From Porphyromonas sp. (GTDB lineage Bacteria; Bacteroidota; Bacteroidia; Bacteroidales; Porphyromonadaceae), in contig JALFBN010000003.1 in assembly GCA_022772085.1 (NCBI GenBank), positions 248,001-312,000 of the forward strand: a DNA stretch of 64,000 nt, given 5' to 3'. A program made the position numbers and the translations under genes. Within the stretch, counting starts at the first letter, position 1. Each line of letters starts with the position of its first letter. This document shows, in pieces, positions 40,523-63,050 of the stretch. The notes under the pieces were generated by a model, which did not search any database, was not told the origin of the DNA, and was given only the letters and a program-made list of their open reading frames with translations.

Positions 40523-40596
40523 GGGGCATTAGCTCATCTGGCTAGAGCGCGACACTGGCAGTGTCGAGGTGATCGGTTCGAGTCCGATATGCTCCA
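40523..40596 (+). tRNA. tRNA-Ala (anticodon GGC)
   Basis: Full cloverleaf: acceptor stem GGGGCAT with ATGCTCC, D-arm around AGCTCATCTGGCTAGAGC, anticodon stem CGACA/TGTCG with loop CTGGCAG giving anticodon GGC at 40557-40559 (reads GCC/GCU Ala), and a T-arm with GGTTCGAGTCC. The discriminator base is A40596 and CCA is not encoded. It has its own promoter element. The prophage begins on its 3' side, so the tRNA 3' end is a likely attachment site. Confidence 0.93.
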
Positions 40597-40819
40597 CGAA
40601 CAACCTTATATATCAACCTGTTACGAAAATTGGACACGATTTTGAACTAGCCTAAGCAATAATATGGTCAAAACAGGGATATACTACTAGTTCTTTATGC
40701 GCTTTGCGTATTAGTAAATAATCGAGAGAGTTTCACTCAGTAAAAAATGGGTGCTCGGATAAAACTGTTGCGTTTTCAGACAATAGTACTCCACTTGTTT
40801 CTCTTATATTTTTCGACAA
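40597..40819. other. Junction region between tRNA-Ala and prophage
   Basis: No gene or clear structure. A stretch beginning TGTTACGAAAATTGGACA (about 40619) resembles the end of IS3-group elements in general look, but there is no transposase. This is where a phage attachment core would lie; the second copy would be beyond the window. Confidence 0.4.
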
Positions 40820-56678: not shown

Positions 56679-57776
56679 TTACTCCTGAACTACTTTGGTG
56701 TCAATCTGGAAGATTGATTCAACGTTGCAAATCACAGGAACAACTCGAGCCTGCGAGGATGTGTACTCTGCCACAGAAGGACGATTCTGACGGAAGCGAG
56801 AGACAAGAATGTAGTCATCTGCCTTTTGATAAGACACCCCCTCAACCGGATGATTTTCCTCTGCAAGTTTCGCATAAGTGAGTACCCCGACCTCAGTAGA
56901 TCCCGTAAGAATCACCTTACCGGCACTCCACGGAGAAATGCTCTTACGCTTACCATCACGTTCTACAAGAATTGTACGGTCGATCACGTGGATTGTAATC
57001 TTGTACTTAGAATCACGCTTGAGGGCTGCGTTGATCTCTTCAAGAGAGGGGGTGGGCACTACGACACCATTTGCAACTTTAAGAGACCATGCAAAGAAGT
57101 CCTTAACCTGCTTAGACGCCACAAATTGATCAAAAGTAGCCTCATCCATATACACCTCTGAAACCGGGAACCCCGCAACTTTTGCTTGCTTGATCATCTT
57201 GCGCAAGTCATCAAGAGGTTTGGCATCATTTGCGTTACTCCACACCACCTTAACTCCTGATTTGTTGCTATCAAGATAGCCATAATCAATACGCACACCG
57301 GTACCAACATTATCCTTATCATCAAGCATGGTAACTCCCGATGAAAATCCCTCCAAGAAGCAACGCTCCATAAGCTCATAGATACCGATAATCACTCTTG
57401 GGGTGTCCTCAAACAACTTCGCCACAATCTCCGCATCAGTTGCCCCGGTGGCTACCATTGTGTCGAGTTCCTGCAATTGTGATTCGTTGAGATACAATTC
57501 CATACCACTCTTGACAATATCGCCAGACACCTTACCAATCGAATCTCTACGCTTTAGAGGCAGGGACGAATCCAATGCCACGAAATCGGCAGAGACACGA
57601 GTATTAAGAATATTGATGGACTCCCATTTGCCGGTAACGGAGAACTCCTTACGCAACATGGTCTTAAACATATACGTAAGCGTGTCTTTATTTTTATCGT
57701 TCACCGTCTCCACTATGTGGACAACAATACCTTTGAAGTATTTCTCGATCCACTGAATAAATGCACTTTTTTCCAT
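56679..57776 (-). CDS. Major capsid protein (gpE-like)
   Basis: 365 residues. Position after the decoration protein, length and the segment LPLKRRDSIGKVSGDIVKSGMELYL (about residues 73-97) fit the lambda gpE (Phage_cap_E) group of HK97-fold capsids. GIYELMERCFLEGFSSG marks the long spine helix. The late part (RPSVAEYTSSQARVVP) fits the C-terminal A-domain strand. It is probably the most abundant virion protein. Confidence 0.82.
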   Translation of the reverse strand: MEKSAFIQWIEKYFKGIVVHIVETVNDKNKDTLTYMFKTMLRKEFSVTGKWESINILNTRVSADFVALDSSLPLKRRDSIGKVSGDIVKSGMELYLNESQLQELDTMVATGATDAEIVAKLFEDTPRVIIGIYELMERCFLEGFSSGVTMLDDKDNVGTGVRIDYGYLDSNKSGVKVVWSNANDAKPLDDLRKMIKQAKVAGFPVSEVYMDEATFDQFVASKQVKDFFAWSLKVANGVVVPTPSLEEINAALKRDSKYKITIHVIDRTILVERDGKRKSISPWSAGKVILTGSTEVGVLTYAKLAEENHPVEGVSYQKADDYILVSRFRQNRPSVAEYTSSQARVVPVICNVESIFQIDTKVVQE

Positions 57777-59015: not shown

Positions 59016-59044
59016 GATTATATTAAATATAATCACTACCTTTG
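59016..59044 (+). promoter_or_regulatory. Promoter and palindromic candidate operator of the ADP-ribosylglycohydrolase operon
   Basis: TACCTTTG (59037-59044) is a -7 element on the + strand. Directly upstream lies an 8-bp perfect inverted repeat GATTATAT-TAA-ATATAATC (59016-59034), in the promoter spacer, where a repressor or activator dimer could bind. A -33 TTTG is lacking, which also suggests activator dependence. The leader is about 80 nt and contains a GAGCTT/AAGCTC hairpin (59088-59104). Confidence 0.55.
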
Positions 59045-59134: not shown

Positions 59135-59371
59135 ATGAATGGAACGACTATTTACCATGTTTGCTTTGGCGATGAAGAGCATTATTACTTTGGCTCTATT
59201 GCCGCTATTTATGAACGCTTCACCCCCGAACAACTCGGGGTATCATTAAGTCGCTTGTGGTCGTTTGGCATCACCCCTGAGCGTCCTTACAAGAATAGAG
59301 TATGCACGATATTTCGTGGGGTGATACAAAGAAAGAAAGGAAATAGATATGTTAGGCGCAATAATCGGTGA
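59135..59371 (+). CDS. Small protein, first gene of the ADP-ribosylglycohydrolase operon
   Basis: 78 residues. It begins MNGTTIYHVCFGDEEHYYFGS, then AAIYERFTPEQLGVSLSRLWSFG, ITPERPYKNRVCTIFRG and a basic tail with many Arg (GNRYVRRNNR). No family is recognised; the aromatic/Cys-bearing N-terminal half and basic end could bind a nucleotide, protein or nucleic acid. It overlaps the hydrolase start by 23 nt, so translation is coupled. It could be a regulator or an accessory to the hydrolase. Confidence 0.65.
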   Translation: MNGTTIYHVCFGDEEHYYFGSIAAIYERFTPEQLGVSLSRLWSFGITPERPYKNRVCTIFRGVIQRKKGNRYVRRNNR

Positions 59372-60140
59372 CATTGTCGGTTCTCGTTTTGAGTTCAACA
59401 ACACCAATAGGACAGACTTTGAGCTATTCACAGATGAATGCTCATTCACAGATGATACTGTATGCACGGTTGCCGTTGCAGATGCAATCTTGCGTGAAGA
59501 AGACTTCGGGAATGTAATACACGAGTGGTGTAACCGCTATCCTAATCCAATGGGTGGATATGGTGGGCGATTTGTCCAATGGGTGCATTCAGACAATCCC
59601 AAACCATACAACAGCTTTGGCAATGGCTCTGCAATGCGTGTTTCTCCTTGTGGGTATATCCCTCGTATAAATGAAGTGATGTTGAATGCTCGCAAATCAG
59701 CCGAATGTACGCACAACCACCCTGATGGAATCAAGGGGGCTGAATGTGTGGCATTATGTATAGCCCTTTCAAAAAGGCACTATCACAATGTTTCCAAAAT
59801 AGACTGGAATAAGGAGCGTATCAAACAATTGGTCGTTGAGCGTTACGATTACAATCTCGACCAAACTTGTGACGAGATACGAAGAACAAACACATTCAAC
59901 GAAACGTGCCAAGTTACCGTACCACAAGCCATCGTGTGTTTCCTCGAAAGCACCGACTTTGAAAGTGCTATCCGCCTTGCTGTGTCAATAGGTGGTGATA
60001 GCGATACAATAGCTGCCATTACAGGGAGTATTGCAGAAGCATATTGCGGCATTCCTCAACAGATACAAGACAAGGCTTGGGGCTATCTGCCCCAAGAGAT
60101 GCAGGATATAATAACTCAATTTTACAAGATATATGGATAA
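59349..60140 (+). CDS. ADP-ribosylglycohydrolase (DraG/ARH-like)
   Basis: Removes ADP-ribose from modified proteins (arginine side chains in the DraG/ARH1 type). 263 residues, full family length. Metal and substrate motifs are intact: GDIVGSRFE at 7-15, the Mg-binding FTDDT at about 34-38, NGSAMRVSP, and GGDSDTIAAITG near residue 220, followed by EAYCGIP. It sits on the opposite strand within a phage late operon, tail-to-tail with the MuF gene whose C-terminal domain is an ADP-ribosyltransferase. The inferred role is antidote/immunity to that toxin domain, or reversal of its action in the lysogen. Confidence 0.93.
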   Translation: MLGAIIGDIVGSRFEFNNTNRTDFELFTDECSFTDDTVCTVAVADAILREEDFGNVIHEWCNRYPNPMGGYGGRFVQWVHSDNPKPYNSFGNGSAMRVSPCGYIPRINEVMLNARKSAECTHNHPDGIKGAECVALCIALSKRHYHNVSKIDWNKERIKQLVVERYDYNLDQTCDEIRRTNTFNETCQVTVPQAIVCFLESTDFESAIRLAVSIGGDSDTIAAITGSIAEAYCGIPQQIQDKAWGYLPQEMQDIITQFYKIYG

Positions 60141-60465
60141 GAAAGCCCTTATAAGGCAATGCCGCTACTACAGCGGTCAAGATGAAAGTCCATTTAATGA
60201 TGCAACAATGGACTGGTTCTGGGATATGGAACGAGTGTATGTTGCTTCACAAGGACAATTCACAGGGGAACGTGATTACTACGAACAAATAAACGGAAAA
60301 CCCTATCCGGGCATTCCGTTTGATTTGCTTATGGTAATGTTTACTTCGTGGGGAAAGACTACCTATTCAATCAAGGATAGCATCAATGATTTCTACAAAC
60401 TAATAGATGAATACCTATTTATCGCTAACGACCATTGCCAGGAAGATAGAATCCCTGGTCAATAG
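60133..60465 (+). CDS. Small protein, third gene of the ADP-ribosylglycohydrolase operon
   Basis: 110 residues, overlapping the hydrolase stop by 8 nt and ending convergent with the MuF gene (7-nt overlap of the 3' ends). Begins MDKKALIRQCRYYSGQDESPFND and has a long aromatic-rich helical body (WFWDMERVY, FDLLMVMFTSWGKTTYS). Similar small proteins with an N-terminal ALIRQCRYY-type segment are, from memory, found near ADP-ribosylation genes in Bacteroides, but no function is known. Could be a second immunity factor that binds the toxin domain. Confidence 0.7.
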   Translation: MDKKALIRQCRYYSGQDESPFNDATMDWFWDMERVYVASQGQFTGERDYYEQINGKPYPGIPFDLLMVMFTSWGKTTYSIKDSINDFYKLIDEYLFIANDHCQEDRIPGQ

Positions 60466-63050
60466 CCTATATTGCTATCCGAAACATAGGTCAATGGCTT
60501 AACATCTTGACCTATTACTTCACAGTCGATAAACGTTTTACTTCCCACTTGGTACACTTTTGTTATTCGCATTATCGTACCTCGTTGGAACAATGTTTCG
60601 TGTTCAGAGCTAAACGATGTGAAACGTTGCTTGCCGTCCCAGTTCCTGCCCGCTCCATTTCCAAAAGCACTAATAGGCTCTATATACGCTGCTCTTGTTC
60701 CTTTTGGAGCATAGATATTCAACACAACAGATTTATTGCTGAACCCTTTACCTTTTCTGCTACCTGTTGACATAAAACCACCCTCTTGCATTGTCATTCC
60801 GACTAAGGACTGTAGGTCATTAGGCATAGTTCCTCCGGCAAACTTGATGCGTGAAGCAATGACGCCAAGTCCATCATCACCTCTCATAAACCACATATCC
60901 TTTGGCAAGATATTTTTACTGATGTAGGATGTGATGTTATTTACTCGATGCTCAAAATCCTTTCGTGTCTGATGGTTTAGGTATTTACGACCCTGCAACG
61001 GCTCGTTTACATTGCAATAGTGATGGGTATATTCATAGACCTTATCTTTTTCATCTTCTGTTGAAGCTATCCAACTCTTTGCTGCAACGTCAATAAGGGT
61101 TTTGTCCGCAACCTTACCACTACCCTTATCCCAAACAGCTTTATCTTTTCGCTCTTGTGTGTAAGAATCAGGAGCAAAGCCATTGCCCAGCTTGCTTAAC
61201 TTCTTCAAGTCTCGTGCAAGTTTTGCGGCTTCCAACTTTGCCACCTCACTATTTAGTGCATCCGCCTTTCCTTGAAGCTCTGAAATAGAAGCATCATTAG
61301 CAAGCAGGGATTGAAGTTCGGATACAAGCTGTTTAACCTTTGTGCTTTTTGTGCTTTGAGCAAAAGAGAATGAATGACTGGTGCTTGCCTCAATTGCCTG
61401 CTTATCAATCTTGTATTGCACCTTGGTGAGGTGTATTTTGTAAGCATCTTTTGCGACATTCCAAGTCTTATACTTCGTTTGAGCACCATACTTATCTGTA
61501 CCAAAGTACTCTTCGGACTCAAACTTCAACTTCTTGGCTTGCTCTTGCAATGCCAAATTATCCCACGATGCAAGTTTCTTTTCAACAGCACTATATACGA
61601 CCTTGAGTTCATCAAGCGTAAACTGCTTGTGCCACTCGTGTATGTTGGGGATAAGTTTAGAAAGGGCTTGTTCTTTCTTTATCATATCTGATATAGCCTT
61701 TTCAACCTCTCTTGAGATAGATTGCATCTTACCAATATCCCCTGAATCAATAGCATTCTGCAAGGCTGAAAAATCAACCTCGTTATAGTCTTTTGCATTA
61801 TCAAGAATGCCTTGTGCTTCTTGCTTGATAAGTGCGTGCTTTTGCTTTCTTTCCTCCCAACGCTTTTGAATGTCTTGTACTTGTTCAGGTGTACGCTTTT
61901 CGTGCCTAATCGCTGCCTTTTCAAGTAATGTTAGTTGGACATATACCAACCCTTTTGTTAGATCCCCATCGATAAAGTTATCCTTAATAAAATAGGGGGT
62001 TGAACTCCAATTTGCCTGCTTTTCTTCGTTTTCAGAAACCCATTCTTTGAAGTTATCGGGCAAGTCTTTTATCAAGTTCTTGGAGACGTACTTCTTAGCC
62101 TCTTCGCCTCTAAGTGCAGCACGCATACGAGCTACACGATCATCTGAACGCTCCTTGCTATAGAAATCCTCAAGAATAGGAACGCAATAGCACATACATT
62201 GAGGGTGCCATCCTTTGAACTTAAACCATTTAGGGTAACGTCCAACAAGACGCGCGCATAGCTTACACTCGCATAGTGGCTCATGGTTCGATCTCCGCAC
62301 CTCAAATCCAATAACAAAATCGAGATTTTGCCATCTCAACCAATCGGATTCTCGATAAGCCATATTGATTTCCGATCGGGTAAGTCGCATAGCATTCTTA
62401 TAGCTACTTCGGTACACGCCTGTACCGGGATGAAAGGCTTTGGCAGACTTTGAAAGTTGCAAGTTTCCGCGCTTATCTCTCACACGCCTAAATAGGCGGT
62501 TGGGGTCTTGCAAGTTCTGTCGCAAGTCCCTTGAAAGTTGTTGAGCTGAACGCCCCTCTCCAAGTCCGACATCAAGACCAACCTCTATTTGAGCCTTGTA
62601 CTGCTCGGCGTACTTCCATACACGCTCAGATAAGTTCATTCCTCCAACCTTGCGCTGCTGGAATGATTGTAATGCATCAAGATTTCGATCTTGGTACTTC
62701 TTTAGCTGTCCCTTTGTTAGCTTTGTTGTATCGAAGATAGAAGCAATGAACTCATCATTCTTTTGGCAAGCGAAGAGCCACTGCTTCCTTGACCCCAATT
62801 CAATAACCGCCTGCATCTTCTTGGCAAGTCTGTTTATTGTTGTCTGCAAACGAGCCCTTGCCTTCGGGTAATCATCAAAAGAAAAAGGCTTCTCCGTGTC
62901 CACGTCAAGGCTAACAGCCATATTCGCAACATCCTCTGTTGCTTTATTGAATAAAGCATTCACAGCACGTGTATAAGCCACTGTAGTTTTATAGTGGGCG
63001 TTATCGAAACCTTGAAAGGAAAAAACTTTTGTCTTCTGCCTTTTAGCCAT
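60459..63050 (-). CDS. MuF-type minor head protein with C-terminal ADP-ribosyltransferase domain
   Basis: 863 residues, far longer than a simple MuF protein. The N-terminal MuF domain (about 150-295) has AYRESDWLRWQN near 231 and paired Cys clusters CECKLC and HPQCMCYC. A helical, coiled-coil-like linker covers about 300-640. The C-terminal domain (about 660-840) has the three hallmarks of R-S-E-class ADP-ribosyltransferases: Arg723 in WFMRGDD, Ser761-Thr762 in GFMSTG, and Glu816-x-Glu818 in SEHETLFQRGT. E-x-E indicates arginine as acceptor. MuF proteins enter the head and can be injected with DNA, so this is likely a virion-delivered effector. The portal and a small gene precede it. Confidence 0.9.
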   Translation of the reverse strand: MAKRQKTKVFSFQGFDNAHYKTTVAYTRAVNALFNKATEDVANMAVSLDVDTEKPFSFDDYPKARARLQTTINRLAKKMQAVIELGSRKQWLFACQKNDEFIASIFDTTKLTKGQLKKYQDRNLDALQSFQQRKVGGMNLSERVWKYAEQYKAQIEVGLDVGLGEGRSAQQLSRDLRQNLQDPNRLFRRVRDKRGNLQLSKSAKAFHPGTGVYRSSYKNAMRLTRSEINMAYRESDWLRWQNLDFVIGFEVRRSNHEPLCECKLCARLVGRYPKWFKFKGWHPQCMCYCVPILEDFYSKERSDDRVARMRAALRGEEAKKYVSKNLIKDLPDNFKEWVSENEEKQANWSSTPYFIKDNFIDGDLTKGLVYVQLTLLEKAAIRHEKRTPEQVQDIQKRWEERKQKHALIKQEAQGILDNAKDYNEVDFSALQNAIDSGDIGKMQSISREVEKAISDMIKKEQALSKLIPNIHEWHKQFTLDELKVVYSAVEKKLASWDNLALQEQAKKLKFESEEYFGTDKYGAQTKYKTWNVAKDAYKIHLTKVQYKIDKQAIEASTSHSFSFAQSTKSTKVKQLVSELQSLLANDASISELQGKADALNSEVAKLEAAKLARDLKKLSKLGNGFAPDSYTQERKDKAVWDKGSGKVADKTLIDVAAKSWIASTEDEKDKVYEYTHHYCNVNEPLQGRKYLNHQTRKDFEHRVNNITSYISKNILPKDMWFMRGDDGLGVIASRIKFAGGTMPNDLQSLVGMTMQEGGFMSTGSRKGKGFSNKSVVLNIYAPKGTRAAYIEPISAFGNGAGRNWDGKQRFTSFSSEHETLFQRGTIMRITKVYQVGSKTFIDCEVIGQDVKPLTYVSDSNIGY

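What the first reader, a model, noticed from the sequence alone, without database searches (positions are those of the whole stretch)
59135..63050. Phage capsid protein armed with an ADP-ribosyltransferase and paired with its enzymatic antidote
The 863-residue MuF protein ends in an R-S-ExE ADP-ribosyltransferase domain (R723, S761-T762, E816, E818). Directly tail-to-tail with it, an inserted + strand operon encodes a DraG/ARH-type ADP-ribosylglycohydrolase with intact metal motifs. The chemistry matches: the E-x-E motif points to arginine as acceptor, and DraG/ARH1-type enzymes cleave ADP-ribosyl-arginine. MuF toxin fusions are known in temperate phages, but a hydrolase used as a cognate antidote in the middle of the head genes is not something I recall. 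Inference: injected ART modifies host proteins (or blocks rivals), while the lysogen protects itself by undoing the mark rather than by binding the toxin.
Basis: partly seen in the sequence, partly recalled or inferred. Interest (0 to 1): 0.92.

Follow-up and report, generated by a model that had tools for sequence, protein, structure and literature searches.

The report
Prophage capsid toxin with two antidotes
A dormant virus in a Porphyromonas-like bacterium carries a head protein tipped with a protein-modifying toxin, and beside it genes for an enzyme likely to erase the toxin's mark and for a small protein likely to block the toxin; this is a new member of a system described in 2024, and comparison suggests that the blocker is inherited with the toxin while the eraser is not.

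Summary
The minus-strand MuF gene (60459-63050, 863 aa) ends in an R-S-ExE ADP-ribosyltransferase (ART). A three-gene plus-strand operon meets it tail to tail: 78 aa, ADP-ribosylglycohydrolase (ARH, 263 aa, metal motifs intact), 110 aa. It is not unprecedented: layout and families match the published Bxa/BAH/Bsi system of a Bacteroides stercoris prophage (PMC11699363), where BAH erases Bxa's arginine marks and Bsi binds and blocks Bxa. The 110-aa gene is Bsi-like, so 'rather than by binding the toxin' is probably wrong: both modes are encoded. Exceptions: a QxE ART lacks ARH, and two MuF-ARTs have a Bsi-like gene but no ARH. New here: across 44 cassettes Bsi co-varies with the ART domain (partial r 0.55), whereas ARH does not (0.06) and follows the MuF core; a P. 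gingivalis phage pairs a 77%-identical ARH with a very different ART. The antidote operon also has its own promoter-like element with a recurrent palindrome. Injection and lysogen protection remain untested.

The parts
60459..63050 (-). MuF-ART protein, 863 aa (Bxa-like)
   Evidence: PHROG 16625 'Bxa ADP-ribosyl transferase' 3.5e-137 and head-morphogenesis PHROG 7625 2e-88
61947..63050 (-). MuF core (residues 1-368), shared across toxin types
   Evidence: alignment A3; 528 viral relatives confirmed, 80 kept
60540..61073 (-). ART domain, residues 660-837; R723, S761-T762, E816-x-E818
   Evidence: PF03496 1e-22; residues; PDB sequence matches to Lmo0066 (8za7_B) 2.7e-9 and a C3 exoenzyme (3bw8_A) 5.7e-7
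60133..60465 (+). Bsi-like gene, 110 aa, overlaps the MuF 3' end by 7 bp
   Evidence: PHROG 19606 (no function given) 2.2e-8; alignment A6 of 29; found by a profile made without window sequences; family covaries with ART
59349..60140 (+). ADP-ribosylglycohydrolase (BAH-like), 263 aa, E15 / D35-D36 / D217, D219
   Evidence: PF03747 2.2e-37; PHROG 6572 6.8e-78; motifs
59135..59371 (+). 78-aa first gene of the operon (PHROG 10608), function unknown, homologues in MuF cassettes with and without ART
   Evidence: both kinds of cassette; AlphaFold2 model pLDDT 88.4, no PDB match at E <= 0.001
59016..59044 (+). Promoter-like element of the antidote operon: palindrome GATTATATT-A-AATATAATC (59016-59034) just upstream of TACCTTTG (59037-59044), a Bacteroidota-type -7 box (consensus recalled)
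   Evidence: recurrent element

Best explanation
A Bxa-type MuF polymorphic toxin in a temperate prophage. The MuF protein, encoded among the head genes, is built into the head and carries a C-terminal arginine-specific mono-ADP-ribosyltransferase. The opposite-strand operon, from its own promoter, makes two antidotes: a BAH-like hydrolase that removes ADP-ribose from modified proteins, and a small Bsi-like protein that plugs the ART active site. The plug is toxin-specific and is inherited with the ART domain; the hydrolase acts on the product, is largely indifferent to which ExE ART is present, and follows the phage backbone. Shown here: domains, motifs, gene overlap, association, covariation, promoter-like element. 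Shown by others for the homologue: toxicity in E. coli, arginine linkage, hydrolysis, binding. Inferred: activity of these very proteins, virion loading, delivery, and when the operon is on.
For: Domains and motifs. The published homologue has the same kinds of parts: the Bxa ART domain is residues 621-869, catalytic E820; Versailles MuF is 869 aa with E820, and the window has E818; BAH catalytic E15 = window E15. MuF-first survey: 7 of 8 MuF-ART vs 0 of 43 MuF without detected ART have ARH next door, Fisher 7e-8; Pfam at E <= 0.001 finds no ART family among those 43. ARH-first: the 45 of 80 viral loci and 6 of 80 genome loci that hold MuF each also hold an ART by my profiles. ExE in 45 of 46 distinct class A domains from loci with ARH, the other being cut before the motif; ExE invariant in the 7 class B/C ARTs aligned. 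Covariation over 44 cassettes: ART~Bsi given MuF 0.55 (p 0.0005), ART~ARH given MuF 0.06 (p 0.18), bootstrap difference 0.30-0.66.
Against: ARH is not obligatory: L258/L259 (one group) and L318 are MuF-ART with a Bsi-like gene and no ARH within 6 kb (L318 has only 2.6 kb of room). ExE is not sufficient: 14 of 17 complete non-redundant phage ARTs not matched by my MuF profile lack ARH, 13 of these 14 with an ExE by simple pattern. Four of six class C ARTs beside ARH have S where R is expected in the R-S-E signature. For classes B, C and D the ART profile was built from the same loci; Pfam backs L018 (at its cut-off), L085, L026 and L098 only. Of the Bsi residues shown to matter (K89, E92), the window protein keeps the lysine but not the glutamate in a three-sequence alignment of remote relatives. 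The best PDB matches of the ARH are ARH3-type and no ARH1 chain is listed, so arginine preference rests on BAH and on the ART motif. No toxicity, catalysis or delivery was tested.
Confidence: 0.88

Rival explanations
1. The ARH is a general phage counter-defence or housekeeping hydrolase that reverses host-made ADP-ribosylation, and merely sits next to MuF-ART.
For: Close ARH homologues are common without any detected ART or MuF in the fetched stretch: 73 of 80 genome loci and 28 of 80 viral loci. Large phages of 337-485 kb carry ARH genes. Iyer et al. 2022 discuss phage ARH domains acting on host-made modifications (PMC9503650, passages).
Against: 0 of 43 MuF genes without detected ART have ARH downstream, against 7 of 8 with ART; homologous BAH neutralises Bxa through its catalysis (PMC11699363).
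Confidence: 0.06
2. The main target is the animal host, as reported for Bxa in B. stercoris colonisation, and the antidotes only prevent collateral self-damage.
For: Alexei et al. cite Brown et al. 2021 that Bxa acts on epithelial cytoskeletal proteins and promotes gut colonisation (PMC11699363; the 2021 paper itself is not held).
Against: Relatives of the same MuF family carry glutamine-deamidase (8 of 43) and CdiA_C-type (1 of 43) domains, typical of conflict between bacteria; not decisive.
Confidence: 0.2
3. Phage exclusion or lysis-lysogeny steering: the injected ART acts in a newly infected cell, and the operon protects lysogens from incoming sibling phage.
For: MuF position beside portal and capsid genes; Jamet et al. 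2017 hypothesis (PMC5576092, passages); the operon has a promoter-like element of its own on the other strand.
Against: No delivery data. The palindrome lies beside the -7 box, so a bound repressor could just as well switch the antidotes off in the lysogen.
Confidence: 0.35

Closest known systems
Bxa / BAH / Bsi, Bacteroides stercoris prophage (Alexei et al. 2024, PMC11699363)
   Same: MuF fused to an R-S-ExE ART; adjacent ARH with the same catalytic E15; adjacent small immunity protein; a third small ORF; head-gene context
   Different: Porphyromonas-like host (inferred); compared here through the Bacteroides phage Versailles homologue (ARH 51%, Bsi 30%, ART region 36% identical), because the B. 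stercoris sequences were not in hand; one of the two Bsi residues shown to matter is not conserved in the alignment used
Porphyromonas gingivalis phage005 (PP754928, BK068088)
   Same: MuF core 77% and ARH 77% identical, same tail-to-tail layout
   Different: Very different ART (16-19% identical), divergent Bsi-like gene (30-32%), and a 78-aa gene annotated as transcriptional regulator in place of the 78-aa PHROG 10608 gene
Tre1/Tri1 (T6SS, PDB 6DRE/6DRH)
   Same: ART toxin with an ARH-type immunity protein
   Different: 6dre_A is 366 aa against 263 aa here and matches only from chain residue 189; T6SS delivery (from PMC11699363 and recalled)
Lmo0066/Lmo0067 (PDB 8ZA7)
   Same: ART and ARH chains in one PDB entry; best PDB sequence match of the window ART, 2.7e-9; ARH match 1.1e-8
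   Different: Listeria, no MuF (recalled; no paper on the pair found)
MuF toxin family (Jamet et al. 2017) and Apk2 with Aph1 and a binding immunity protein
   Same: MuF polymorphic toxin; Apk2 also has one enzymatic and one binding antidote (PMC11699363)
   Different: Other toxin chemistry

Membership tests
Bxa/BAH/Bsi system | MuF N-terminus fused to R-S-ExE ART | tested here: met
Bxa/BAH/Bsi system | Adjacent ARH with catalytic Glu and metal residues | tested here: met
Bxa/BAH/Bsi system | Adjacent small protein of the Bsi family | tested here: met
Bxa/BAH/Bsi system | Bsi residues K89 and E92 | tested here: inconclusive
   Lysine kept, glutamate not, in an alignment of three remote sequences
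Bxa/BAH/Bsi system | Arginine ADP-ribosylation and its reversal | not testable with these tools
   needs enzyme assays
ARH/DraG family (PF03747) | Profile match and binuclear metal motifs | tested here: met
   2.2e-37; motifs
ARH1-type (arginine-specific) subfamily | Arginine-ADP-ribose specificity | tested here: inconclusive
   Best PDB sequence matches are ARH3-type; DraG-type (2woc_A) 4.3e-6; no ARH1 chain listed at E <= 0.001
Tre1/Tri1 | N-terminal ARH extension (feature recalled) | tested here: not met
   263 aa; PF03747 match starts at residue 1; 6dre_A is 366 aa
MuF polymorphic toxins | Shared MuF core with swapped C-terminal domains | tested here: met
   77% identical core with a very different ART in phage005; relatives with Gln_amidase and CdiA_C

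The most novel reading that the evidence does not exclude
Two-tier immunity: the enzymatic antidote is a toxin-agnostic eraser tied to the phage backbone, which lets a phage exchange one arginine-ART domain for a very different one without self-killing, while the binding antidote is a toxin-specific module exchanged together with the ART. Both are driven from a palindrome-bearing promoter that recurs on the opposite strand of related phages.
Probability: 0.55. Interest if true: 0.6.

Novelty: new member of a known kind. Interest (0 to 1): 0.42.

Why it matters
It extends a published phage-borne toxin with double antidotes to a Porphyromonas-like lineage. It also suggests why two antidotes are kept: one tracks the toxin, the other tracks the chemistry. 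If cross-protection tests agree, this would give a simple rule for how polymorphic toxin domains can be exchanged, and a source of general arginine-ADP-ribosyl erasers.

Tried and rejected
Rejected: that the pairing is a chance neighbourhood; that ARH occurs beside MuF genes in general (0 of 43); that ExE alone predicts ARH. The one MuF-first exception, L186, carries an internal ART with QxE plus a C-terminal glutamine deamidase. ARH is not one phage lineage: on a quick tree (SH-aLRT only) of 153 ARH proteins the MuF-ART label needs 17 changes, 7 of them forced by well-supported branches. Structure of the 78-aa protein: confident model, no PDB match. Class B ART (phage005): Pfam gives nothing; profile comparison to class C gives probability 86%, E 4.9e-6, but to class A only 4.5%; one moderate model (pLDDT 64.6, pTM 0.67; the other four 38-42), made with class C rows in its alignment and so not independent of them, matches ART structures, best Vis toxin at 3.0e-9. 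The paper searches for Lmo0066/Lmo0067 gave no account of that pair.

Rows dropped: one search left out 19 of 80 MuF loci (open ORF or under 1.5 kb downstream) and 10 near-duplicates. One search reduced 82 ART ORFs (class A profile, E <= 1e-4) to 56 groups: 3 lacked room, 11 had no start of the ORF in the contig and so no verdict on MuF (1 of these 11 with ARH), leaving 25 and 17. Of the 25, L310, L319 and L324 have weak or partial MuF matches; L319 has its ARH on the same strand; L251 is the QxE one. With the weak three moved to the other column and L251 left out the counts are 19 of 21 against 4 of 20 (p 6e-6). One search used only cassettes in which MuF, ART, Bsi-like and ARH were all detected (68, reduced to 44; near-copies L002 and L010 both stayed in).
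Full report
What is there. The minus-strand ORF 60459-63050 encodes 863 aa: a MuF-type head protein (head-morphogenesis PHROG 7625, 2e-88) with a C-terminal ART (PF03496, residues 660-837, 1e-22); it matches the PHROG named 'Bxa ADP-ribosyl transferase' at 3.5e-137. On the plus strand lie 59135-59371 (78 aa), 59349-60140 (263 aa, PF03747 2.2e-37; E15, D35-D36, D217 and D219 present) and 60133-60465 (110 aa), overlapping one another and the MuF end. Portal (63240 onward) and major capsid (56679-57776) flank them. The own genome (2.06 Mb) holds one ARH match at E <= 0.001. The contig ends 3.7 kb beyond the window, just past the terminase gene, so the rest of the prophage is not seen. In 38 genomes of the family held, only the own genome and a fragment in one other match the ART alignment. 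The host is called Porphyromonas-like from the nearest named relatives of its prophage genes only.

Already published kind. Alexei et al. 2024 (PMC11699363; abstract and whole Results read) describe Bxa, a MuF-ART of a B. stercoris prophage. It kills E. coli, modifies arginine, and is neutralised by BAH (an ARH1-like hydrolase; E15A abolishes this) and by Bsi, which co-purifies with it; a third ORF did not protect. They also report relatives with glutamine-deaminase and alarmone-synthetase domains. Zhang et al. 2012 had predicted Imm-ARG for R-S-E ARTs (PMC3482391, passages). Iyer et al. 2022 note MuF-ART fusions (PMC9503650, passages), and Jamet et al. 2017 the MuF toxin family (PMC5576092, passages). 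I did not have the B. stercoris sequences. Phage Versailles serves as proxy: its MuF is 869 aa with E820, like Bxa, and its small protein shows the K-Y-x-E spacing of Bsi. The window ARH is 51%, the 110-aa protein 30% and the ART region 36% identical to Versailles. A profile grown from the Versailles small protein, with no window sequence in it, finds the window's 110-aa protein.

Starting from MuF (80 best of 528 viral relatives), 51 loci remained after dropping 19 unusable and 10 duplicate ones. ARH lies within 3 kb downstream in 7 of 8 with ART and 0 of 43 without (Fisher 7e-8). Pfam finds no ART family in the 43, but Gln_amidase in 8 and CdiA_C in 1; an ART too remote for Pfam and my profiles would be missed. 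Starting from ARH: of 80 viral loci (best of 168) 45 hold MuF, each with an ART, 7 an ART without detected MuF, and 28 neither; of 80 genome loci (best of 554) 6 hold MuF, each with an ART, 1 an ART only, and 73 neither. Caveat: the ART profiles for classes B, C and D were built from these loci; Pfam independently backs L018 (just at its cut-off), L085, L026 and L098, while L043, L063 and L089 rest on similarity to them. Starting from ART (80 best of 101, with the five loci in the same script): in non-redundant loci with room, ARH is near 20 of 25 MuF-family ARTs and 3 of 17 complete ARTs not matched by my MuF profile (Fisher 1e-4). The five MuF-family cases without ARH are L259 and L318 (Bsi-like gene present), L251 (the same contig as L186; QxE), and L310 and L324 (weak or partial MuF matches).

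Chemistry. Of 46 distinct class A domains from loci with ARH, 45 have ExE at the window's E816/E818 columns and one is cut before the motif; of two from loci without ARH, L186 has QxE and L243 is cut by the contig end. The 7 class B/C domains aligned have ExE, but four of the six class C ones have S where R is expected. That ExE goes with arginine and QxE with other acceptors is recalled knowledge. Many ExE ARTs outside this MuF family have no ARH, so this is a fit and not a rule.

Two antidotes, two inheritances. In P. gingivalis phage005 the MuF core and ARH are each about 77% identical to the window while the ART is 16-19% and the Bsi-like protein 30-32% identical; in L011 the ART is 89% and the Bsi-like protein 92% identical but ARH only 74%. 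That the phage005 domain is an ART rests on its FRG and EQE motifs, a profile match to class C but not to class A, and one moderate model matching ART structures. Over 44 cassettes, ART and Bsi identities correlate given the MuF core (partial r 0.55, permutation p 0.0005), ART and ARH do not (0.06, p 0.18), and ARH follows the MuF core (r 0.49); the bootstrap interval of the difference is 0.30-0.66. This fits a product-eraser that need not recognise the toxin and a plug that must. Limits: identity matrices, not trees; only cassettes whose Bsi-like gene was detected; near-copies L002 and L010 both kept.

Control region. Upstream of the operon lies a perfect 9-1-9 palindrome (59016-59034), found nowhere else in the window with up to 3 mismatches, just before TACCTTTG (59037-59044), a Bacteroidota-type -7 box (consensus recalled). 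The box alone is common: 60 in the window against 44 expected. Within 300 bp upstream of the 78-aa family, it occurs in 30 of 75 MuF loci (24 of 43 with ART, 6 of 32 without), against a mean of 7.2 in mononucleotide shuffles and 10 on the other strand. Palindrome plus box together occur upstream of ARH in 17 of 50 MuF-ART loci and 1 of 109 other ARH loci; shuffles give a mean of 0.14 loci, at most 2. It also occurs on the strand opposite MuF in phages with other toxins, sometimes twice, so it belongs to the opposite-strand gene block rather than to ART cassettes. The motif was drawn from some of the loci on which it was then counted, so these counts describe and do not test. A bound repressor would shut the antidotes off; whether they are on in the lysogen is open.

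Verdict. phage005 of P. gingivalis is reported as producing nuclease-protected DNA in culture (PMC10367356, passages), which offers a way to test virion loading; those passages do not mention its ART or ARH. Ten searches of the held library listed no title or abstract start on ART-antidote covariation in MuF cassettes or on this promoter element; two listed papers that bear on cross-protection in general (PMC12483513, PMC13392607) I saw only as listings. Subscription papers and preprints are not held.

Noticed in passing
own-genome locus L250, 696-3143 (-), in the 3.7 kb beyond the window end: Read by eye, the large terminase (815 aa) seems interrupted at its Walker A region by an intein-like insert with LAGLIDADG-type stretches. 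The phage005 terminase gene has the same length (2448 nt), but its sequence was not checked.
   Followed up: no
59016-59044 and loci L170-L249: Palindrome plus TAnnTTTG element recurs, mostly on the strand opposite MuF, in related phages, before antidote operons and before other opposite-strand genes.
   Followed up: partly
59135-59371: The 78-aa PHROG 10608 family accompanies MuF genes with and without ART; in phage005 a gene of equal length annotated as transcriptional regulator takes its place.
   Followed up: partly
L030, L032, L033: MuF and ART are separate ORFs on the same strand, beside Bsi-like and ARH genes.
   Followed up: no
L186, 5992-8946 (+): A MuF protein with two toxin-like domains, an internal ART with QxE and a C-terminal glutamine deamidase, and no ARH within 3 kb.
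   Followed up: partly
L018, L043, L085, L089: Class C ARTs beside ARH have S where the R of the R-S-E signature is expected; whether they are active is unknown.
   Followed up: no
40523-40597: A tRNA-Ala gene lies to the left of the phage genes seen and may mark the integration site.
   Followed up: no
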